Assembly (NCBI GenBank): GCA_027627225.1
Contig: CM051030.1
Location: 2,187,501 to 2,251,500 of the forward strand
Length of the DNA stretch: 64,000 nt
Origin: Congeria kusceri
Lineage: Eukaryota > Mollusca > Bivalvia > Myida > Dreissenidae
Direction: 5' to 3'
The notes under the pieces were generated by a model. That model saw only the letters and a program-made list of their open reading frames with translations, ran no database searches and was not told the origin of the DNA. Position numbers and translations under genes: made by a program. Below are positions 9,881 through 52,563 of this stretch, one piece after another (the first letter of the stretch is position 1; each line of letters starts with the position of its first letter).

Positions 9881-11151
9881 CACCTGTGGTTTGTAGAGTT
9901 TTATGAGGGATTTGACTTCTCTGATCACAGATCAAGACACTGTGATCTGGCTAATATTATTGATTATCAATCACAGGACCTTGCTACCTTTGTTAAATGT
10001 CAGAGACAAAGAGCATTTCTGTTTGGAGTTTTAATTTTGATATTCATGGTTGAACTGTCAGATGGAATTGAGCAGGGTTCACGCCAGGTACGGTACTTGT
10101 TCCTTTGTTCAAGGTAGATATTTATGGGCTGTGTGCACAGCCAGATACACAACGAAATGTCACACATGGATGTAATTTATTGTGATTTATTTTTGAGTGG
10201 GTGGGCACAAATATTACCATTATTGTTGGATTTATAGAAAAGACGTTTTCTTCACTGATTGTAATGTAAGTGTTCTTTGATTTCAGTTTAATTTCGGCGA
10301 ATGTGATTGTAAATCAATGTATATAATTAGCTGGAGGAAGTGGTTTGCAGTTAGGTATGAAAGAATTCAACTTGTACACTGTTGCAGTGCAGTGTTATCT
10401 ATTCAACATTATTGCTTTGTGCGTTATCAGTTAAAAGTAAATAAAAACAACACGGTGTCAAATGCATAAATAGGCATAGAGTTGATTTGCCCATATCTAA
10501 TCATGTACACACGCATTCTTTATCAAATGTGCTGAAGATTTTACTGTATCAGTGATTTGTTGAGTTTTATAATCAAATTGCACCTAACTTTAAATGGCTT
10601 CTTATAATAACTTGAAATGTGGTCATATTACAATAGACATTTTACAATTGATCTCTATAGACAGGGGTACTGATGCTTGCATCTTACTATGCAATACTTC
10701 CGATAATTATACGCATCAAAATGGGGTAGAAATGAATGAGTAACTGACTAGCATGTTGATTTGTATTGGTAATAAATGCAGACATATAAATTATGTGCCC
10801 TTTTGCTTAGAAAATTATAAAGAATACATACCATCAAAGTGCCATTGTGCTTTTAATAGAATTTATTAGGTTTCTGCATCAATTACTTCAAAGATGAAAC
10901 AATATCATTAATAAGGAGACCAATAAATAATGTTCTAAAAAGCATTAGATCTTGGACTATATTAAATGCAGTGCCAGCTGAATAAAAGGCCCGTTTCCTG
11001 CATGTGGGAACACCATGGGAACACAATACATCCTTTATTAGGTCTGCTGCAAGCTTTTGTGTCTGAAGTGCCACTCCTTAGGTTATCTTTTCTGCACACA
11101 CTGCATTCCTGTCTCGTTATCACATTTATGAAATTTGAAGTTATCTCAAGC
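9881..11151. other. Non-coding stretch
   Basis: No feature recognised; short ORFs near 10883-11190 overlap on both strands without domain content. Confidence 0.5.
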
Positions 11152-23340: not shown

Positions 23341-23700
23341 ATAAAAACAAAAGCCAACAAATACAAACTGTTGATGAAATATAAAAACAAAAGCCAACAA
23401 ATACAAACTGTTGATGAAATATAAAAACAAAAGCCAACAAATACAAACTGTTGATGAAATATAAAAACAAAAGCCAACAAATACAAACTGTTGATGAAAT
23501 ATAAAAACAAAAGCCAACAAATACAAACTGTTGATGAAATATAAAAACAAAAGCCAACAAATACAAACTGTTGATGAAATATAAAAACAAAAGCCAACAA
23601 ATACAAACTGTTGATGAAATATAAAAACAAAAGCCAACAAATACAAACTGTTGATGAAATATAAAAACAAAAGCCAACAAATACAAACTGTTGATGAAAT
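23341..23700. repeat. 40-bp minisatellite, 9 identical units
   Basis: Exactly nine copies of a 40-bp unit (ataaaaacaaaagccaacaa, then atacaaactgttgatgaaat) with no difference between units. The 40-bp period shifts the reading frame each unit, yet all three minus-strand frames stay open, which gives long repetitive ORFs without coding meaning. Confidence 0.98.
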
Positions 23701-24129
23701 ATTTTACAATAACTTGAATGTGGTCTTAGATATATATTTTAAATATGAACCCAGTACTTAACTGAGTATTAATAAGAGATTTATTGGACTAACGCACGAA
23801 CATTTAATGTACAGCATCATGTCAAGTGATATTTTAATTATTCAAATATATCATACATTTTATTTTTCGACATTTGTAACTCTTGTTATCGTTTAGCAGT
23901 TATAAATGACTTTCCTAGACTGGGGCTAAGAAATAATTATTTGCAGCCAGATGTTTAGATTTTTAAAAAAATTTCCTAGAAAATAACAAAATTTAATTGT
24001 GCCTCATGTTAGAACTATACTATTGGACATGTATTCAACATTTACTTAGCATAGTTTTTGTCTGACCCATCGTAACGTAGATATGGCTATGCGTGACAAA
24101 ACTACAATACTTCCTCCATTATTTTTCAG
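23701..24129. other. Sequence just upstream of the first coding exon
   Basis: Presumed 3' end of an upstream 5'-UTR intron, ending in the acceptor ttatttttcag. No other signal. Confidence 0.5.
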
Positions 24130-26280
24130 GAAGATGAGTTGAAGACCTTGTAACCATGGGAAACAAGCATTCTAGCTCGAAGGATGCCCATTTCTCTGCC
24201 GAGTCCCGTGGGCGGAGCAGGTCATTCAACGGGCTCGCGTCCCGCTTCCGGAAGGCCAGCAGAAGCCCTCCACGGGAGCGAAGCAGCTCGTTTGGTGAGT
24301 CAGGAAAACCGCACCGAAAGGGAAGCGAAAAAGTGGGTCAGAACGGCGTATTCAAGAGTGGCCATAATGGGCACTTGATCCGAAGAGGTCACGATATTCC
24401 AATAACCACCACGCTGACAAGAGACAATGGAGGTGTCGATGCCCAGAATGATGTCAAGGGAACTGCCGCAAAAGAAAGCTTGAGTAAACTGTCGCAGTCC
24501 GCCCCCAGTGGGCGGGGTTTCCACTATCGGCATTCTCCTGCCCGCAATGTTGCACCTGTGCTGGAACAGGTGTCTGCTGGCTCTAAGCCAGTGAAAGACC
24601 TTAGTGAAAGTCAGGATAGTTATAAATATAGTTGTCCTTCCCCCAGTAAATCATTAATTTTAGATGAAAATGATACCATCATCAAAAGTTCGAATCTGAA
24701 GAATTTGAAAAACCAGCAGTTATCTGATAAGCCTGAATTAATAGAGAATTATTCAGAAAATGCACATATCACTGCTTCACAAATGCGTAATGTTTCTCGG
24801 GAACTGTTTTCTGAGCAGCTGGAGGATTTGGCCAAAAGACGAGGCATGGCAACGTTGAATCGTGATTTATCCTTATCAAATGCCAGTCTGGGTTTGCTTT
24901 CGAATCGATCCAAGTCTATGCATAGCTTAAGTTCTAATGATTACGATTATGAGGAACGGTGCAAAGTTGGAGAACTACTTTCTTTTGAGGATAGTTACCA
25001 AGTGGGTGAATTGTGTAGGAGCATAACTTCTCAGTTTTCTAGTGAAAATCAGGATAAAGATGACATATTTCTGCGACCACGAACAAATTCTGCTTCGGCA
25101 GTCGATCTAGGGAGTTATAACAGAAAGCAAATGGCATTTGGTAAGACGAGTGCAGAGATCAGGCGCAATTTGGCATCTCAGTATGCAATAGATCCTAACA
25201 AGTCTGCGCAGAAAAGTAGTTCCACAAATAATGTTGGACCTGACGTCATGCAGGCACGAAGAATGCTGGTTGCCAGGGCACTCAAAGACGGAGACCCTGC
25301 AGAAAAAGAGGAGAACATTCCAGCTCTTGTATCGCCCCAGCAACCACAGTCATTGCAGATGCCACAGGTATCACCGGTTAAACAGAATTCCATCCAAAGT
25401 TTCACAGTGAACGAGGGTGTTTCAATGACCACCGCTAACCCTGTAAGCACTGGACCCAAAGCATCCCCGAAAATGGGACGACGTAGCTCCGCAGGCAGGC
25501 TACAGGGGCCTATTACGACTCCGGAAAAGTCTTATGGCCTTGCAAAGCAGGGTACCCCATCCCCAAGTGGCAAAATGTTCCTCTCAAGGCGTACATCTAG
25601 TCCTATACTCTCACAGAGCTCTGTGTCTACTCCAGAGAAAACCAGCATGCATCAGAGCGTGACAATAACCAGCTCAGGTTCATTACTGCAAGACATTGAC
25701 AAAAATCAGCTGCTAGCTGTGAATATGACCAAATCAATGCAGAAGTTTTTACTGGATAACCAAGGAGTGGGGACGAACTCTACTGATTACGAAAAACTGC
25801 ATAATAAGCTGAATAAGAAAAAGAAATCCACAGCGGCATTGCAGGATGGCGCGCTACGTGAAAGGAGCAGTAGCTTCTCCATACTGTCATCGCGTCAACA
25901 ACAACAACAGTTCGTCCAGCAAATGATCTCACAGCAACAGGAAGAATTGAGTAAAAAGAAAAAAGAGCAGGAGGTTATGGTGCCGCCAGAAACTCAAATT
26001 ATTCACGTTCAATCTAAGTCATACGACAGCACGCCAGTTTCGACCGGTGGCGACTCAGGCTTTCGGAGTCGTAGTCAGAGCTGGTCGTCGCTGTCGCGGA
26101 AAAGCGTGTATGAATCGCAACAGCAGATTAGTAGCGTGATGAACCCTGTGAGCAATCTGTGGAGTTATAGCGAAGTGTCGCTCGCAGAGTTACCCGTAGA
26201 TTTGACCTCCCAACCTCAGAGGTATATCTCGGTAATCGAGGATGACGGACCGCCGCCTGAGATTCTGAATTTCTCACATG
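24130..26280 (+). CDS. Large first coding exon, long isoform of RING/TANC-like protein (5' part, partial gene)
   Basis: The ATG at 24156 opens 708 codons plus one base, ending at a strong donor (catg|gtaagt, 26281). The start is supported by Kozak context (accATGG) and an in-frame TGA at 24135-24137. A pyrimidine-rich acceptor (ttatttttcag) ending at 24129 implies a non-coding exon further upstream, which I could not locate. The product begins MGNKHSSS, with Gly2 and Ser6 as in N-myristoylation signals. It continues with a basic Ser/Arg-rich stretch (about 17-55, RSRSF and RSPPRERSSSF), then long Ser/Thr/Pro-rich, probably disordered sequence with many possible phosphosites. A Gln/Lys-rich helical or coiled-coil patch spans about 581-605 (QQQQQ, then KKKK), followed by an acidic end (EDDGPPPEI). 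No enzyme domain is visible. The exon is GC-richer than its surroundings and free of repeats. Family assignment rests on the RING exon at 48970: I infer a TANC/Rolling-pebbles-like scaffold with moderate confidence. The existence of the exon is nearly certain. Confidence 0.9.
24156..24179 (+). other. Candidate N-myristoylation signal
   Basis: The first codons read M-G-N-K-H-S-S-S. Gly at position 2 and Ser at position 6 fit the general N-myristoyltransferase substrate pattern, and a basic region follows within 20-50 residues, which could assist membrane binding. The isoform starting at 44535 begins M-A-A-N and lacks this signal. The membrane-targeting role is inferred. Confidence 0.5.
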
Positions 26281-39888: not shown

Positions 39889-41307
39889 AAAGTATTAAGA
39901 TTGTGTATATTAAGTCAACTAATATATAGATCTAGATATTATAATTATTGTGAGAATAACTTGATTTTATTCTATAGAAATTAAAAACAGATGTTCAGAT
40001 TTAAGTACAACCCTACTTTGTCTAAGTTGTAACATAATTTATGCATATTTTTCATTGAGTAATAGTTTAAATTTGTAAACAGGGAAATATTATTGTTTTC
40101 ATATTTAAGTGCTCTTGTTGGTGCCTTGATCACTTGAAATGAAATATGATTTGTATCTTGAAATAAAGGGTGTCATTGTGCATAAAATTAAATCTTTTTC
40201 CATTTGATTAATGTCAACCATTTTACAGAATCAGAATTCATTGAACAAATATCTCAATAGGTGCTATCATTTTTAGTGATTTTGTGTCTGTTAACACACA
40301 ATGTTTTCATTTTTGCAGCCCTTAGTAATTTTACTTTATGTCTTAAAAACGTTATGGTAATGTTTATTTTCGAGACATTATATCATTTATAGTAAAAACT
40401 GTGCAAAAATGTTTTTGGTACCTTGATAGAAGTAGAGATTAAATATAAAAATTTAAAGAAAAATTCCTTGTGAATTTGAACCTTCATGTACCTTCTTGTA
40501 AGTTATCTTAGCTTTGAAAATTTGAAGTAATATTCTTTGTGAATTTGAACCTACCTTCTTGTAAGGTATCATCACTATTATCACAAATATTATTAAGTGT
40601 AAAGAAGTTCAATAAAGTAGGACAATAACGAATACCCAGGGTGTATGATAATCAAGACAATATTAGATAGATCCACAATGCTGCTATCAGCCCAATGGAG
40701 GTCCTAGGACAGATCATTAATTGCCTATATCAGGGAAAGATCAGATCATAGATTCTTAACTAAATATTGATATGTCCAAACATGGCTTAGTGCACTAAAC
40801 ATAGGTCAATGTTGGCTTTAATTTAGTAAAATTATTTTCAGGTCAAATATTTTTACAGGCACAGCTTTGTATGGATGCCTGTATCAGCAAGTGTGGTGTT
40901 TTTAAATTCCTGTTGTTAAAATTCGCACTTGGTATGCATTTCAGAAATACATAATGTCTTGCCTGTGAATACACCTTTGATGTTTTTGTGAAGTAAAATG
41001 TAGACTGTAAACATGTGCCAGTGTTGCAAAGAATTTGATATCGGGCTATGATTCGTGTTTTTGGATTGGTGGTCCGTTTTATAAATGAAGAGCAAATTGG
41101 AATTTTTATTGGATTTTGAGGTACGAAAATTGTTATTTTATAGAGTAACAGTAATTGTAATATAATTACCTTTATTGAACTTTAACAATAATGTTGTGAA
41201 GTACACTTTATCATGTTAATTTAACCATGGAATTGAGATTTGATCACATTTTCAAGGACTTCATCGAAAGAAAATCTAAAACATACCTGTTTCATGACAG
41301 CATTTTC
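39889..41307. other. Intronic stretch
   Basis: A small duplication of ttgtgaatttgaacct…taccttcttgtaag (about 40467-40565). No other feature. Confidence 0.5.
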
Positions 41308-42034
41308 AGCTCGCCTGAGCACAAAGTGCTCAAGGGTGAGCTATTTTGGTCAGTCATCGTCCGTCGTCCGTCATCATTCGTCAACAATTCACTGCAAACA
41401 ACTTCTTCTCAGAAACCACTTTGTGGATTTTACCCAAACTTGGTAGGAATGTAGCTGCTTGCTGGATTTTAAATATATTTGTGGCGCGTCCTGGGAAAAC
41501 CGGACTTGATGCATGTGCGTAAAGTGTCATCCCAGATTAGCCTGTGCAGTCTGCACAGACTAATCCGGGACAACATTTTCCGCCTAAAGTGGATTTATGG
41601 TTGGAAGACACTTCATTGAAACAGAAAATACCATAAAAGCGGAAAGTGCCATCCCGGATTTGCCTGTGCGGACTGCACAGGCTAATCCGGGACGACACTT
41701 TACGCACATGCATTAAGACCAGTTTTCCCACGACTTGCCTCATTTATAAAAATGTTTGTTGGGTGACCCTCTACCAAATTCCTTCAAATTATTTATAAAC
41801 ATGGCCACCAGGGGGTGGGAACCTCTTGCTGGATTTTGAAATAATTTTCACAAAAATGTTACTACTATCTACCATTGTCTTGATTTGCTAAAAAAAATTG
41901 CTGTCAGTTGTCCATTGTTGATGTCCATCTTCAATGTTTCACCTCAAACGTGTCTGCATACGCTATTAGCCTTTTACGAGCCATTATGGTTCATTAAACT
42001 CAGGTGAGCGACCCAGGGCCATTTGGCCATCTTG
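41308..42034. mobile_element. Family F element, interrupted by a family B MITE
   Basis: The left end agctcgcctgagcacaaagt…caagggtgagct contains its own inverted pair. The right end taaactcaggtgagcgaccc complements it loosely (gtcgctcacctg). The middle holds cagaaaccactttgtggatt, and a complete family B copy sits at 41480-41743. Confidence 0.75.
41480..41743. mobile_element. Family B palindromic MITE, copy 5 (nested)
   Basis: Full-length, with both hairpins; inserted in family F, so it is the younger of the two. Confidence 0.92.
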
Positions 42035-43495: not shown

Positions 43496-43504
43496 TATAA
43501 ATAG
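43496..43504 (+). promoter_or_regulatory. Possible TATA box upstream of alternative first exon
   Basis: TATAAATAG fits the TATAWAWR consensus and lies about 1 kb upstream of the ATG at 44535. Sequence from here to the exon is free of recognisable transposons, which suits a promoter plus long 5' UTR. The motif is common by chance in AT-rich DNA, so this is weak. Confidence 0.25.
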
Positions 43505-44534
43505 TATGTAAATTATTAATCTATACCTGGAGGATAGGCCGCTGGCCGTGAAATGTGTGTGCACAGGTATAATGTTTTAAGAGCATTAACGGTGTTAACG
43601 CTAGGCTAGCTATCTGGTATGCGATATATACAACTTTGTTCTACTCATTCATGTTAGCAATCTATGATCTTGACACATTTATGTTATCTCACTCTGCTAA
43701 GGGACAACTTTTTTTTATGGATTTTTGAAAGTGGTTGTGACTTGCTGAACAGACGTTCGTTTGTGACTTTATGTTTGAGGTAGACGGACATCAGGAAGAG
43801 TTGGTGGTTTTGTAGGGAGATAATTGCGGCTCTCAGACACATGGATTGCAGTTATCACAGGGATAGCAGTTAATTTTTAGAGCAGTGTGTTGTTGTGGTT
43901 TTGGGGATTACTAGGCTAGTGTATTGAAACATCTACAGTGGATATGGAGGGCGGAATGAAATGAATTGAAGTCAGCGATGATGAAATTTTTTTGTACGGC
44001 GGTTGGTTACTGGGCATACAGTTTCAAGTGGGTTTTAATTTAAATGTGATGGTGGCGGTGTTGGTGTTTTATTTAGAAGCTTGGATATTTTAACAAGCTG
44101 GAAACACAGTTAATAGTGGTGTTTGTTTCTAGTTTATTTTGTACGACAGTTGTTTAGTAAAGTGCTTTTTGTGTGTGTATAAATTTGCACATATTTGTGG
44201 CCTAGCCTATCCTGTAATACCTTTTGGTTTGATATTTTGTTGAATACAGTTAAGGGTCATTTGATAAATTAATTTTCAAATTATGATGAAGTGTTTTTGG
44301 TGATTTCATAAATAGTAACAGCAGATGAACATATAAAGATATCAACGATCTTGAACATGGCCTGAATATGTAATGAATGAAGCTGAAATTGTGATTTATC
44401 AAGAAAGTTACTTTTAGTGGATGAATACAAATTGTGATTTACTAAGAAAGTGTGGGTGTTGTCTTATGAGATGTGAATTTTTTATTGGATCACCTTGTAA
44501 AGAGAACACATGTGTATAGACAGACAAGTACACC
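43505..44534 (+). other. Putative promoter-proximal / 5' UTR region of the short isoform
   Basis: About 1 kb without any repeat family recognised elsewhere in the window, and with more G than its surroundings (runs such as ggatatggagggcgg near 43945). It ends at the Kozak-context ATG at 44535. I infer a 5' UTR and/or promoter region. There is no direct evidence for a transcription start. Confidence 0.3.
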
Positions 44535-44568
44535 ATGGCTGCCAATGGATATAACGAAAAAGAACATG
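44535..44568 (+). CDS. Alternative short first coding exon (11 codons + 1 base)
   Basis: A Kozak-context ATG (caccATGG) at 44535 opens M-A-A-N-G-Y-N-E-K-E-H and ends one base into a codon at a consensus-like donor (catg|gtaggt, 44569). An in-frame TAG at 44517-44519, 18 bases upstream, fixes the start. The leftover g in phase 1 joins exactly to the acceptor at 48970, where g+ac gives Asp, just as the 708-codon exon does. The two alternative exons also end alike (…SH|D and …EH|D). The resulting protein would lack the long Ser/Arg/Gln-rich N-terminus and put the RING at residues 46-83. It lies 18 kb downstream of the large exon and 4.4 kb upstream of the RING exon, so it would need its own promoter. 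No transcript evidence is available. The combination of start, stop and phase makes chance unlikely but not excluded. Confidence 0.72.
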
Positions 44569-44718
44569 GTAGGTCAGATTATGGTTCTATTACTGACATA
44601 CTTCTTGGTGTTTGATGGTTTTTAGTTGATACCAAAATTTAAAATGATGAACCAGTAAATATTTTTGCCATTATTTCTGACAGTACAAATGGAGTCTCAT
44701 TGCATTCATTTGAAAGAT

Positions 44719-45152
44719 TGGCCAATTATCACATAATTTTAAGTACTTTATTAGTTATAAATAGGGTTATAATGATTAATTGGAAATAGTGGCCAATTAT
44801 CACATAATTTTAAGTACTTTATTAGTTATAAATAGGGTTATAATGATTAATTGGAAATAGTGGCCAATTATCACATAATTTTAAGTACTTTATTAGTTAT
44901 AAATAAGGTTATAATGATTCATTGGAAATAGTGGCCAATTATCACATAATTTTAAGTACTTTATTAGTTATAAATAGGGTTATAATGATTCATTGGAAAT
45001 AGTGGCAAATTATCACATAATTTTAAGTACTTTATTAGTTATAAATAGGTTTATAATGATTCATTGGAAATAGTGGCCAATTATCACATAATTTTAAGTA
45101 TTTTATTAGTTATAAATAGGGTTATAATGATTCATTTGAAATATTGGCCAAT
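44719..45152. repeat. 71-bp minisatellite, 6 units
   Basis: Six units of ggccaattatcacataattt…tataatgattaattggaaat, the last one or two more diverged, starting 150 bases after the donor of the alternative first exon. Confidence 0.95.
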
Positions 45153-45728
45153 GTAATCACTGAATTTACTAGTACTTAAATAGTTAAAAATAGGGTTAAT
45201 ACAATTAATTTGAACTGTTGACCAAAACTTATATAAAATGAAGTAGTAGAACAATAGAAATTATAAAAAAGCGCAAAACAATTAATTTAAAATATTGGTT
45301 AAAAATCTGTAGAATTTAAAGTTCAATAGAATAGTTAGCAATAAATAAGGTTAAAACAGTTCATGGGAAATGTTGGCAAAAAATCACACACTTGAATGTC
45401 AAAATTATTTATAAGTTAGGTCAAATTTACATATCGGTAAAGTAAACTAATACAAGGATTTAGGTTATCAATGTTTGGTCGATTCTTTGTTTACATTTCG
45501 ATGTCAGTTTTGGAAAGTACCATGTACGATCATACCGTATTTAATCTATGTTTTGGGACACTAAAAACTTTGTTTTCAGTGTCCGAATATTTAGCATACA
45601 AAATGATTGTTCCAAGTCTGTCCGAGAATACAGCATCTGTAATATTGTCATAAACTCGCAAATGCGTCAAGCGCTCTTCTATATTGTCATCTGCAATTTA
45701 TAATGGTTTTCAGTTAGTGGTGGAGGCG
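45153..45728. other. Intronic stretch with decayed array remnants
   Basis: About 45150-45420 shows fading similarity to the 71-bp unit (taaaaatagggtta, aatattgg). Nothing else. Confidence 0.5.
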
Positions 45729-45732
45729 TTAA

Positions 45733-46301
45733 AGGAACCTGTTCACAGATCGACGAATTGACAATTTTTCAACGTTTTGTTACTGATTCCAAAAAAAAGG
45801 AACAGTGCATACAAGGGAGCAAAATAACACTACAGACCAAGAAATACTGTAAAAACCATTTCTTTTATGAGTAATCATCAGTTGAAATTTGCTAAAATTA
45901 TAAAGCGTTTGTAACACTAAACGATGCAATAATTTGGAGTGTTTCTGTTGTTTTCGTTGAAATGTTGACATCACATGGAACACTTACATAAAAAATCATT
46001 CATAGTTAAACGCAGAAGTCAGAATGGCCGAGTGGTTAAGGCGATAGCCTTTTAATACGCAGGTCCAAGGTGCGAACCCCGGTGGGACCTTTTTTTTTCT
46101 TCTTTTTTTTGAAATACTTTTCTTGAGTTTTTAGTTCCGATGGTTAAATCTGTCAAGTTAATACATTTAATGGCATACTTCAAAAAATGCGAAAATCAGC
46201 GGTTATACAATAAAATGGGTAAACACAATAGGGAAAACACCTGTAAAAACGACTGTTGCTCACTATGAACTGTTCAATGATAATGGGTGTTTATTGCCTC
46301 T
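45733..46301. mobile_element. Family A-like TTAA-flanked element with tRNA-like block
   Basis: TTAA at 45729-45732 and 46302-46305, and ends AGGAACCTGTTCACAG and TTGCCTCT resembling family A termini. It holds a + strand tRNA-like block at 46021-46090. Confidence 0.6.
46021..46090 (+). other. tRNA-like segment (not a full tRNA gene)
   Basis: agaatggccgagtggttaag resembles a Ser/Leu tRNA 5' half with A box, and ggtgcgaaccccg resembles a B box. The acceptor stem pairs poorly and a long variable arm is missing. It is followed by poly-T/C, so transcription by Pol III is conceivable. Confidence 0.45.
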
Positions 46302-46573
46302 TTAAGTATCTGTCCGAAACATAGATAACCATTGAATTCCAAAAACAGTGACACAGAATAATTACTTTGTGTGATTTTGAGGATATCAGAAATGATACAA
46401 TGTCTGAAAACGTAGATTAAATACAGTAATACTTTCTTCATATCTTATCACTGTCAAGATACCAGTGTATTTGTTTTTATGAAGTCACACAAGGGGTTCA
46501 ATTCTTGTGTATTTTCCCTGCAATTTCAAGCTTTTCAAGCTTCTCATCAAATGTTGGTATTGGTCTATCAAAA

Positions 46574-46826
46574 ATGAGTCATGTCGTGGGAAAACCGGGC
46601 TTAATGCATTAGCGTAAAGTGTCGTCCCGGATCAGCCTGTGCACTCCCAACAGGCTAATGTAGGACAGCACTTTCCGCCTATAGTGGATTTATGTCTACA
46701 AGAAAATTCCTTGAAGCAGAAAATACCATAAAAGCGGAAATTGTCATCCCGAATCAGCCTGCATAGGCTGATCCGGGACGACACTATGCACACGCATTGG
46801 GCCCAGTTTTCTTAAGACACGCCTCA
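46574..46826. mobile_element. Family B palindromic MITE, copy 6
   Basis: Ends atgagtcatgtcgtgggaaa and cttaagacacgcctcat. The right hairpin is shortened (atcagcctgcataggctgat). Confidence 0.88.
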
Positions 46827-47788
46827 TATATAAATGTTGTTTTATTCATAAAGGGAATATTTTATTGTCCATAATATCTATAAGAAATGCTGAACAATTT
46901 TTATGGTGAAGTTGAAGAATCCTTTTTAAAGCAAAAATAACAGCTTCGTGTTGCTTGATAAGACAGATATATATGAAGAAAAAGTAGTTTTTAACCTCAT
47001 TTGATAATATTTATCAATAACTACACTTTCGTATTGATCGTTTCACATTAAAACTTAAGAAGTTTTATCTTTTGTTTTCAACTATACAAATACATGAAAT
47101 CTAGTTCAAGTTATATGCTCTCATAATTATGCTTCACTTGTCTTAACAATGTTGAATTGAAACTGATTGGGTAAGAGTTTTTTGTATTGGTAAATGTGCC
47201 AACATATTTAATGTAAAATAATAAATGGTTAAGTCATTGATTCAGATAGATAATATTTATGAATCGTTATTATGTGTGAAATGTATTGCTCAACCATAAA
47301 TGATGTTTAAGTATTATTTACAATATGCTGTGCATAAATATAGTTCATATTAACTGGTTACAGGTACTGCTAGACAAATGATTTTTCTGAACTTTTATTG
47401 TTGAATAGAAAACAAAGCAGCAAAAATTATTATCATAATTCTCTAACATAATTTCAGTAATTTTAATTGAATGTTCTAATTGTTACCCTTAATAATCCAT
47501 ATAAGAAACCATTCTTTTAGTGGTCATACTGCATGATCCAATATTAATCCTTTTTTTATTTGTATGGTTTTAAAAATCATTGGAAATGCAACTTTGTAAT
47601 ATTACCAAACATGTTTTTAACATTGAATTCATGCCAAAACTCGCTTGATTCAACCGCTCAGAAGCTAAGAAGGTCATATTATACTTGAATCTCAACATGC
47701 CGTGTTTATTGGCGTTAACGTTTAAGTTTTGTGTGTGTGGGCGGTACCTTTAAGGGAGGGGGGGGTTTACAAAATTGTAATGCCTTAA
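46827..47788. other. Intronic stretch
   Basis: No feature recognised; a short G-run near 47757. Confidence 0.5.
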
Positions 47789-48120
47789 AGGCACTTTTTC
47801 ACATACTTTCTCATTTTTCATAAAAAAATATTTAAAGAGTCTTAACTCCAAAACCCCATTTGTATCTGGACTTAGCAACCCTGATATTTTATCAAGAACA
47901 GCATACACAAAGAAAACAAGTAGTTTCTCCGCAGGGTCTCAAACGTATGACCTCCGAAAACCAAAGTCTGTCACACTTTCCACTAAGGCAGATGGATTTA
48001 TGTGCGTTAGTGTCAATTTTAACCGTTGTAAGTAATGGAGCTATTTTAATGTTTTACATGGTACACTTAAAGATTTGAGGAAAAAATAAAAAATGTTGAT
48101 AATTTATAAAATTAAAACCT
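47789..48120. mobile_element. Family A element, left part
   Basis: Starts ttaa|aggcactttttcaca like family A and continues with a tRNA-like block (ctcaaacgtatgacctccga) and the ctaaggcagatggatttatg tract. No matching right end was found. Confidence 0.55.
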
Positions 48121-48576
48121 GGGAAAAAAATATTAGTTAAACATTAATTTAAGACTGTTTACTAGAAATACAAAGCACACGCTCCCTGTGATTCTCCACA
48201 AATTTAAGTGAACTATAGTAAACATAGTATGAGCTCAGTATGGGGCATTGATACTCTTGATTATTGCATGTAAATCTGGTATCTCCAATTATCTGGTCAT
48301 AGGTATTTGTGGGTTAGTTTTTCTTTTCCTTGTGATATGACACTGTATACCTTGCTAATTGGTAGTGACATGTTAGTTAAGCACATGGATAGATCATACT
48401 AAGTCTTCATTATTTGTTGACATGTGCTCAGTCAAAAGGTTATGGAGTGTTTGTTTTATTCACAATGGAGTAATTATGTATAATAAATACATTAGGTTTG
48501 CTAACCCAGACTTATTTGTTTACTAAGAACCACAATAATTTTGAAGGTTAAATACAGATCAAACGATTGAATTGTA
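48121..48576. other. Intronic stretch
   Basis: No feature recognised. Confidence 0.5.
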
Positions 48577-48902
48577 ATGTTCATTTGGCTGTTTTCACCT
48601 CTGTGCTGGTTCTGTAAGATATTATTTTGCCTAGATAATTTGTCAGTGCCACATTACCAATGGGTTCTGGCTTTAAACCATTATTTTTATGGGGCCTGAA
48701 AAGCGACATATAGGGGGTTACTTTGGGGGCGGTGGCAGTGACCCCTTCAGTTTGTGCAGACAATAACTTCAGTTTTTATGCAATCAATATGAAGCTTTAG
48801 TGAAGTGTTAGTAGGCATAAAGGAAGGTTAAGTTCTGTTTTCGGCGTAATTACTCTTATCATACTATTATGCCCCTTCAAGCGACGCATCCGACTTGCGG
48901 AG
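48577..48902 (-). repeat. Family I dispersed repeat, copy 2 (inverted)
   Basis: The reverse complement matches 11152-11410 over about 220 bases (ggatgcgtcgcttgaagggg … tgtctgcacaaactgaaggg). It ends only about 70 bases before the RING exon. Confidence 0.75.
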
Positions 48903-48969
48903 TTCTAGTATATGTAATGTATTAATTATTTTATTATACATTGTATATCATGTTCTCTGTTTGTTTCAG

Positions 48970-49191
48970 ACCTGGATGTGATACAGAACCTGGGTATGGA
49001 CGGCCCCATGGCGCCACGGGTGCTGGGCGGGGCCCAGAGCCATCAGCACCTGGCTCCTCCCCCTGACCTCTGCCCCACGTGTCACCTGCCATACGACTCG
49101 TCTAGGAAACGGCGCCTCATAGACGCGTGCGGGCACGAGCGGTGCTGGTCGTGCATGTTTAGCAAGGAGGAATGTCCGCTCTGTAACAGCG
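48970..49191 (+). CDS. RING-finger exon (C3HC4) of TANC/Rolling-pebbles-like protein
   Basis: The exon follows acceptor tgtttcag (ends 48969) and stops before donor g|gtatgt (49192). Its 222 bases are phase 1 in and out. It begins D-L-D-V-I-Q-N-L-G-M and carries a compact cross-brace zinc finger, C-x2-C-x15-C-x-H-x2-C-x2-C-x6-C-x2-C. In the long isoform the ligands are C743, C746, C762, H764, C767, C770, C777 and C780; in the short isoform the RING is at 46-83. Core residues read CPTC … LIDACGHERCWSCMF … CPLC. RING fingers usually recruit E2 enzymes for ubiquitin transfer, but a tight C-G-H-E-R-C RING in a scaffold may be mainly structural. From memory, Drosophila Rolling pebbles (Rols7) has such a RING ahead of ankyrin and TPR repeats, which is the basis for the family call. 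The RING itself is certain; the family is inferred. Composition is clearly richer in GC than the flanking introns. Confidence 0.93.
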
Positions 49192-50022: not shown

Positions 50023-50102
50023 GTGCGGACACGAGCAGTGCTGGACGTGCATGTTCAGTAAGGAAGAATGTCCGCTCGGTAATAGCGGTATGTTGTTTTC
50101 TA
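50023..50102 (+). pseudogene. Decayed partial duplicate of the RING exon and its donor site
   Basis: About 80 bases align without gaps (offset 896) to 49127-49206, the last 65 bases of the RING exon plus the start of its intron. About 8 of 65 exon bases differ. In the original frame it reads CGHEQCWTCMFSKEECPLGN. The final zinc ligand Cys is now Gly (tgt to ggt), and two other changes alter residues (R to Q, S to T); the other five are silent. The donor g|gtatgt is kept, but no pyrimidine-rich acceptor precedes the copy and the first half of the RING is missing. It is therefore most likely a non-functional remnant of a ~0.9-kb tandem duplication. The excess of silent changes would also fit a duplicate that was used for a time. 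Confidence 0.85.
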
Positions 50103-50799
50103 CTGTAAATTTTCTTTTGCTGTGTATAAATTTCGAGCATTTTTGAAAAACGGCTCATTCACGCAGTCTCTAATTCGCGTATTTGTGATTTGTATCAGTA
50201 TCAATAAAAATTTGTTGATTATCATGCAAAAAGAACATTTGCAAGGATCTTAAATTCGCGCTACGGACATGCCACAAAATACACGAAATAGACTAATGTA
50301 GAAGATAATTATTGTATAAAAGTAAATCTATGAAATTCATACTTTCATTGATTACTGTAACTTATAAACTGGGTATAATATAGGTTATTCAATAAAATTA
50401 ATGTAAATATTTATCTGCCTTGGGAGAAATAGTAGACACTGTTCACCCACCCCTAGTTTGATACTATTCATGCATTTCAGTGAACAAAAATAACTACCTG
50501 AATGAAAATAAACACAAATAAACATGCAGTTTCATGAATTATTTTGTCTCATGTTTATTGGTTTTCATAGCAGCCGAAAAAAGGTAATTTTAATACGTAA
50601 ATAAAGACATAACAGACACTCTTGTGAAGAAAGAGTCCTTGAGCCCCCAAGAAATTAATGGAAACCGAAATGAAACGTTGCGTGCAGCCAAAGAATCATG
50701 GCACAGACGCGCCTAAAATAGTCGCATTAATTGTTCGATAATGATATTTCTCTCTCTGCAGTCTCCCTGGTAACAGTTTATAAGAAAGTATCTGTTTTT
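50103..50799. other. Intronic stretch
   Basis: No feature recognised. Confidence 0.5.
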
Positions 50800-52410: not shown

Positions 52411-52563
52411 GCGTTTTACTCCGACACTACAGTCAGAACAACCTGGATTATCGGCCCAAACTAAAGACGAACGGACACTTCACAACGTACATGCAGACTA
52501 GACCCGACAAAGACACGTCACACTGCCAAACACCACAACCTCAGAGGCCCCAATCTGCTGCAG
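52411..52563 (+). CDS. Third shared coding exon (51 codons, partial gene continues beyond)
   Basis: Bounded by a polypyrimidine acceptor (tttttttttcag, ends 52410) and donor gcag|gtaaac (52564). It has 153 bases, phase 1 in and out, and continues the frame of the RING exon: the split Gly codon is g+gc, followed by V-L-L-R-H-Y-S-Q-N-N-L-D-Y-R-P-K. The remainder is polar, rich in Thr, Gln and Pro (HCQTPQPQRPQSAA), and matches no domain I recognise; it is probably a linker after the RING. It corresponds to residues 784-833 of the long isoform. The G-family transposon (52036-52376) ends only about 34 bases before the exon, so it lies next to the branch-point region. I found no further exon in 52564-64000 that was open, phase 1 and repeat-free, so the next one is probably beyond the window. 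Confidence 0.85.

What the first reader, a model, noticed from the sequence alone, without database searches (positions are those of the whole stretch)
44535..48975. Hidden 34-base alternative first exon gives a second, short isoform of the RING protein
The ATG at 44535 has a strong Kozak context and an in-frame stop 18 bases upstream, encodes 11 codons, and ends in phase 1 at a good donor. That is the phase required by the RING exon 18 kb downstream of the first ATG exon. Both alternative exons supply the same leftover base g and end with His before the shared Asp. The long isoform carries a possible myristoylation signal and 708 residues of disordered sequence; the short one replaces these with 11 residues. 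From memory, Drosophila rolling pebbles also uses alternative 5' ends (Rols7/Rols6), so this could be a parallel or ancient arrangement.
Basis: partly seen in the sequence, partly recalled or inferred. Interest (0 to 1): 0.8.

Follow-up and report, generated by a model that had tools for sequence, protein, structure and literature searches.

The report
Possible alternative first exon, mussel rolling-pebbles gene
In a mussel's version of the fly muscle-fusion gene rolling pebbles (TANC), a tiny possible start exon could make a short protein without the long, probably membrane-anchored front part; short forms of this protein are already annotated in related animals, so the arrangement is ordinary, and whether this exact exon is used still needs RNA evidence.

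Summary
The exon is there as described: 44535-44568, ATG in CACCATGG, in-frame TAG 18 bases upstream, 11 codons plus g, donor GTAGGT, phase 1 into the RING exon at 48970. The gene is a dreissenid-like rolling pebbles/TANC gene. The long exon (708 codons) is confirmed by seven relatives; 19 of 59 TANC relatives carry an MGN N-terminus plus RING, 18 named molluscs and one unnamed record. RING-bearing short models exist in Dreissena polymorpha (isoform X2) and Mya arenaria, so the short-isoform idea is sound and already in databases.

This exon as its start is not proven. For: the only pair in the intron as good on both start context and donor (0.045 expected), and similarity to Mya's first exon MNGTRFERKY|D (2nd or 3rd of 244 mini exons by scoring scheme, 1st of 122 in the intron; control p 0.001-0.05). 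Against: D. polymorpha X2 has a different first exon, not found in the window; several molluscan short models start next to the RING; ATGs are not depleted upstream. Verdict: probable, ordinary alternative first exon; new member of a known kind.

The parts
24130..24155 (+). 5' UTR piece of the long exon, after a good acceptor (TTATTTTTCAG)
   Evidence: sequence; pyrimidine fraction 0.84
24156..26280 (+). long coding exon: MGNKHSSS..., 708 codons + g, donor GTAAGT
   Evidence: relatives P0003-P0009
43496..43504 (+). TATA-like TATAAATAG, candidate core promoter of the short form
   Evidence: the other 5 of its 6 plus-strand copies in the window lie in the tandem array 44704-45198; no evidence of function
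43501..44550 (+). stretch with the highest G>C plus T>A strand asymmetry in the window after the GAT-type array at 42.7-43.1 kb, just upstream of and over the mini exon
   Evidence: 500-base windows starting 43501-44051; only this direction of asymmetry was ranked
44535..44568 (+). candidate alternative first coding exon MAANGYNEKEH + g, donor GTAGGT
48970..49191 (+). RING exon, shared; C..C, C.H..C..C, C..C all present; internal Met 48996-48998 could also start a short form
52411..52563 (+). next shared coding exon (GVLLRHYSQNNLDYRPKLKTNGHFTTYMQ...)
   Evidence: 89% identical to P0001

Best explanation
44535-44568 is probably a real alternative first coding exon of a dreissenid-like rolling pebbles/TANC gene. 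A promoter inside the 22.7-kb intron (about 43.5-44.5 kb) would start an mRNA whose 34-base coding end is spliced in phase 1 to the RING exon at 48970. The short protein would keep RING, ATPase, ankyrin and TPR parts but lack the 708-residue N-terminal exon with its myristoylation-type signal and basic stretch, so it would not be lipid-anchored. Shown: exon signals, frame, both downstream exons in the window, conservation of the long exon, RING-bearing short models in Dreissena polymorpha and Mya. Inferred: transcription start, use of this exon, the domains beyond the window, membrane versus cytosol localisation.
For: Intact signals and frame. Only pair in the intron with both scores this high, 0.045 expected. 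Similar to the Mya first exon: over nine scoring schemes 2 or 3 of 244 window mini exons (itself included) score as high, and only this one of 122 in the intron; p among 6649 control minis 0.0014-0.02, among length-matched controls 0.0023-0.040, among length- and Asp-matched controls 0.005-0.054. No acceptor of normal quality in the 285 bases upstream (best pyrimidine fraction 0.63 against 0.79-0.84 at the three other acceptors), as expected of a first exon. Strand asymmetry and a TATA-like site upstream. Short models in D. polymorpha and Mya. The junction residue is D, H, Y or N in 37 of 42 rows that have one there, window included, as a codon N|AY split by a phase-1 intron predicts.
Against: D. 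polymorpha X2, the nearest annotated relative, uses MYHSGSHGNLTQTWRRRK|Y, not found in the window; against it 44535 ranks only 59th of 244. ATGs are not depleted between the TATA-like site and the exon: 27 seen, 24.7 expected; 3 within the last 75 bases. The Mya exon is itself only a model, and the similarity rests on about 5 identities including the start Met and the junction Asp. Other short models start at a Met next to the RING and need no coding first exon. By summed score another pair, 41227-41335, is better. CpG observed/expected at 43.5-44.25 kb is only slightly high (ranks 68-69 of 254). Donor and start weights are recalled.
Confidence: 0.52

Rival explanations
1. The short isoform exists but starts from another, distal 5' exon (like D. 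polymorpha X2) that skips the long exon and joins the RING exon directly; 44535 is a chance ATG-donor pair.
For: The D. polymorpha X2 N-terminus MYHSGSHGNLTQTWRRRK|Y joins at the same place and is not found in the window (best ungapped score 27 against 111 for identity), so it lies outside or is not conserved; the acceptor before the long exon suggests a more distal exon.
Against: Does not explain the start/donor quality or the similarity to Mya; the X2 exon might be an additional one.
Confidence: 0.3
2. The upstream exon is non-coding in effect and the short protein starts at the Met inside the RING exon (ATG 48996, G at -3 and +4).
For: Mytilus californianus P0011 and Crassostrea virginica P0024 start MDG.../MED... 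at about this place; 13 of 59 relatives (5 of them Branchiostoma) start within 16 residues of the first RING Cys.
Against: The D. polymorpha X2 and Mya models start upstream of the RING exon; 44535 has a strong start context and would be met first.
Confidence: 0.13
3. This species makes no short isoform; only the long exon feeds the RING exon.
For: No transcript evidence could be examined here.
Against: Short models in both closest bivalve records and in other molluscs.
Confidence: 0.05

Closest known systems
Drosophila rolling pebbles, Rols7/Rols6 (passages of PMC4169254 and PMC2789252 seen)
   Same: Same gene family; two promoters give transcripts with specific 5' exons, Rols7 in mesoderm, Rols6 in endoderm and Malpighian tubules.
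   Different: Fly protein sequences were not compared here; none of the insect entries starts with MGN, but these are cluster representatives of limited length.
Dreissena polymorpha protein TANC2-like isoform X2 (P0001)
   Same: Short form; RING exon 87% and next exon 89% identical, same junction position.
   Different: N-terminus differs in length, sequence and junction residue (Tyr, so base T, against Asp, base G).
Mya arenaria TANC2-like protein (P0002)
   Same: Short form with a 10-residue start + Asp (MNGTRFERKY|D), resembling MAANGYNEKEH|D.
   Different: Only weakly similar; the evidence behind the Mya model is unknown to me.
Molluscan TANC models with MGN N-termini (the 19 entries listed)
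   Same: Long-exon form, joined to the RING part.
   Different: Some oyster and scallop models leave the long exon early (P0016 against P0015); not tested in the window.
Anoplophora glabripennis TANC2 isoforms X2 and X3 (P0050, P0052)
   Same: Two different N-termini, from contigs of the same length, joined to DLAAIRRLL before the RING.
   Different: No MGNK exon; N-terminal sequences look unrelated.

Membership tests
rolling pebbles/TANC (RING form) | N-terminal RING with conserved context | tested here: met
   RING exon 87% identical to D. polymorpha TANC2-like; all RING ligands present; Pfam zf-RING_5 2.6e-05 but below the curated cut-off
rolling pebbles/TANC (RING form) | TANC ATPase lid and winged helix, ankyrin repeats, TPR | not testable with these tools
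   these exons were not found in the window and presumably lie beyond it; present in the close relative P0001
Rols7/Rols6-type two-promoter gene | two promoters with specific 5' exons | tested here: inconclusive
   candidate exon and promoter-like features only; no transcripts
Rols7/Rols6-type two-promoter gene | tissue-specific use of the two starts | not testable with these tools
   no expression data
N-myristoylated proteins (long isoform) | MGxxxS/T N-terminus, conserved | tested here: met
   the window and 25 of 28 other MG-starting sequences fit MG[NACSD]..[ST]; P0026, P0028 and P0057 do not (motif recalled)
N-myristoylated proteins (long isoform) | actual lipid modification | not testable with these tools
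   needs labelling or mass spectrometry

The most novel reading that the evidence does not exclude
Across molluscs, alternative 5' exons of rolling pebbles/TANC act as a membrane-anchor switch: the long exon adds a myristoyl-plus-basic anchor and a long, probably disordered arm to a RING scaffold, and a small intronic first exon (MAANGY in this mussel, MNGTRF in Mya) removes both. This would parallel Rols7/Rols6 in flies, with the phase-1 junction before the RING as the ancient, shared docking point for changing first exons.
Probability: 0.3. Interest if true: 0.5.

Novelty: new member of a known kind. Interest (0 to 1): 0.35.

Why it matters
Rolling pebbles acts in fly myoblast fusion (passages of PMC8834112) and TANC proteins are reported as postsynaptic scaffolds (abstract of PMC5533708). 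If molluscs switch a lipid-anchored N-terminus on and off by first-exon choice, it gives a simple, testable control of where this RING scaffold sits, and suggests that first-exon swapping before the RING is old in protostomes. The single exon by itself is a small annotation gain.

Tried and rejected
Considered and rejected: (1) mini exon as an internal exon: no acceptor of normal quality upstream. (2) Shared His + g as evidence: the g is donor consensus and the residue is not conserved. (3) The half-RING copy at 50023-50104 as an alternative RING exon: 88% over 82 bases, last RING Cys lost, first half missing. (4) The D. polymorpha X2 first exon in the window: not found. (5) Related genomic loci, asked with the long exon only: none confirmed in genome contigs or viral contigs, as expected for an animal gene. 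(6) Literature: no paper held has both 'Dreissena' and 'rolling pebbles'. PMC5533708 (TANC in silico; passages only) has no hit for words beginning 'ring' or 'invertebrate'. A broad search for TANC2 with bivalve terms listed 10 of 3,880 papers, none of the ten holding TANC2, so it settles nothing. Four further searches and the myristoyl search were seen as listings only, apart from papers opened. PMC8834112, PMC8805411, PMC2826419: passages only. I do not claim that the molluscan arrangement is absent from print.

Mended at the self-check: rank against Mya is 2nd or 3rd by scheme, not always 2nd; two donors in the possible leader are as good as known ones; repeat counts corrected.

Full report
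What the gene is. Searching with the RING exon (residues 1-74 of a query from 48972) gave two proteins from 7 candidates: Dreissena polymorpha TANC2-like isoform X2 (P0001, 1498 aa) and Mya arenaria TANC2-like (P0002, 1388 aa). tblastn of both on the window places the RING exon (87% to P0001) and a next exon at 52411-52563 (89%), and no convincing later exon, so the rest of the gene presumably lies beyond the window. P0001 carries Pfam TANC1-like ATPase lid and winged helix, ankyrin and TPR. The long exon is 84% identical to a D. polymorpha model in the alignment (78% by the search's BLASTP). So the window is probably from a dreissenid other than D. polymorpha, or a paralogue; the species was not identified.

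The long isoform. The exon 24156-26280 encodes 708 residues starting MGNKHSSSKD. A search with it found 7 relatives among the 7978 candidates scored (a capped set): one D. polymorpha GenBank model (P0003, on a contig of the same length, 66,979,997, as P0001) and six unnamed ORFs from ena or lgn contigs. All six start MGN[KR].SS and have a Gly at the place of the donor, then run on without similarity, which fits a conserved G|GT donor read through; their DNA was not seen. A profile search with P0001+P0002 found 63 proteins at E up to 1e-30 among 7975 scored candidates (capped, lengths limited by the query). Four (P0067-P0070) are weaker matches to other ankyrin proteins, leaving 59. Of these, 19 start with MGN and carry the RING: oysters, pearl oyster, scallops, abalone, limpet, Gigantopelta, octopus, and one unnamed record (P0013). 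Several are the same species, so this is not 19 independent cases. Residues 2-60 hold 10-17 K+R against 3-6 D+E in the MGN-starting sequences. The myristoylation motif is recalled, not from a tool; no Pfam family was found in the exon at E up to 1. Disorder was not computed; I take it from composition.

Short isoforms. Of the 59, 13 start within 16 residues of the first RING Cys, 22 have another upstream sequence of 18-212 residues before it, and 5 lack an intact RING by my pattern. P0010 (Potamilus) begins MKFTFTVFI|D, which looks like a translated intron end, so I do not count it as an exon. P0001 begins MYHSGSHGNLTQTWRRRK|Y and P0002 MNGTRFERKY|D. All are database models; how far RNA supports them was not visible. 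The P0001 cluster has six members, of which I saw one.

The junction. On an alignment of the 54 RING-bearing relatives plus the window (55 rows), the residue at the junction is D 23, H 11, Y 2, N 1, other 5 (Q, S, E, R, G), gap 13. D, H, Y and N are the residues of GAY, CAY, TAY and AAY, as expected if exons that end in any base join an acceptor exon starting AY in phase 1. The informative rows are the 14 with H, Y or N; ten of the H rows are oyster or scallop, so they are not independent. Two Saccostrea echinata models show D with the full long exon (P0015) and H after an early exit from it (P0016); they come from contigs of different length and differ slightly elsewhere, so they may be two assemblies or loci. 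Two Anoplophora isoforms show two unrelated N-termini before DLAAIRRLL.

The mini exon. In the intron, 6 of 562 ATGs have an equal or better start context and 16 of 1460 GTs an equal or better donor, itself counted in both. Both at once: 1 pair in the intron, expected 0.045. By sum of scores: 2 in the intron, expected 0.31; the better one is 41227-41335. These weights are recalled and the thresholds are the candidate's own, so the figures flatter it.

Cross-species test. I listed the ATG-to-phase-1-donor mini exons of 3-29 codons (244 in 1-48940; 122 in the intron) and scored each against the Mya and D. polymorpha first exons. Against Mya, under nine scoring schemes, 2 (five schemes) or 3 (four schemes) of 244 score as high, itself included, and only 44535 of the 122 in the intron. 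With BLOSUM62 and gaps -6/-1 the one above it is 10062-10092, with a poor donor and upstream of the long exon. Control p over 6649 mini exons from 30 simulations and the minus strand is 0.0014-0.02; length-matched (2133) 0.0023-0.040; length- and Asp-matched (996) 0.005-0.054. Against D. polymorpha X2 it is 59th of 244, and nothing in the window resembles that exon.

Promoter evidence. The 500-base windows starting 43501-44051 have the highest G>C plus T>A asymmetry in the window apart from the GAT-type array at 42.7-43.1 kb; the opposite direction was not ranked. The stretch starts near TATAAATAG at 43496. But ATGs are not depleted there (27 seen, 24.7 expected), so a contiguous 1-kb leader would be hard to scan; a nearer start or a spliced leader would be needed. 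For a spliced leader there are two donors (43616, 3.4; 44027, 3.6) as good as those of the RING exon (3.4) and the next exon (3.6), but no acceptor of normal pyrimidine content before 44535.

Literature. [quoted passage not shown] PMC2789252 (passages) says the TPR repeats are conserved in Rols6. Hence the kind is known. Whether the molluscan and fly arrangements are one ancient feature cannot be told from N-termini alone.

Verdict. Observation confirmed; interpretation partly supported; probable but unproven exon of an ordinary kind. The more interesting part is the molluscan MGNK exon that first-exon choice would add or remove.

Noticed in passing
50023-50104: A partial copy of the 3' half of the RING exon with its donor, 88% identical over 82 bases; the last RING Cys codon reads Gly. 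Likely a relic of a tandem duplication.
   Followed up: partly
46581-46830 and nine further places (58001, 19437, 61957, 53507, 34503, 41488, 38482, 12590, 52973): A roughly 250-base repeat, 75-81% identical between copies, that also matches itself on the opposite strand (67%): probably a palindromic, MITE-like element.
   Followed up: partly
44704-45198: Tandem array of about 7 copies of a 71-base unit, 136 bases after the mini exon; it holds 5 of the 6 plus-strand TATAAATAG copies of the window.
   Followed up: no
46018-46090: tRNA-like sequence by eye (what look like A and B boxes), not called by ARAGORN or at Rfam's gathering score; possibly tRNA-derived. Three tRNA calls lie elsewhere (8263, 16243, 37129).
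   Followed up: no
oyster proteins P0014, P0016, P0017, P0019-P0023, P0025 and scallop P0027: Models that seem to leave the long exon early, after ARRMLV[YF]RALK..., and enter the RING exon with His instead of Asp: a third, intermediate N-terminus. Aligned only for P0016 against P0015; the rest from their residues.
   Followed up: partly
23341-23702: Tandem array of about 9 identical 40-base units, ending 428 bases before the long exon.
   Followed up: no
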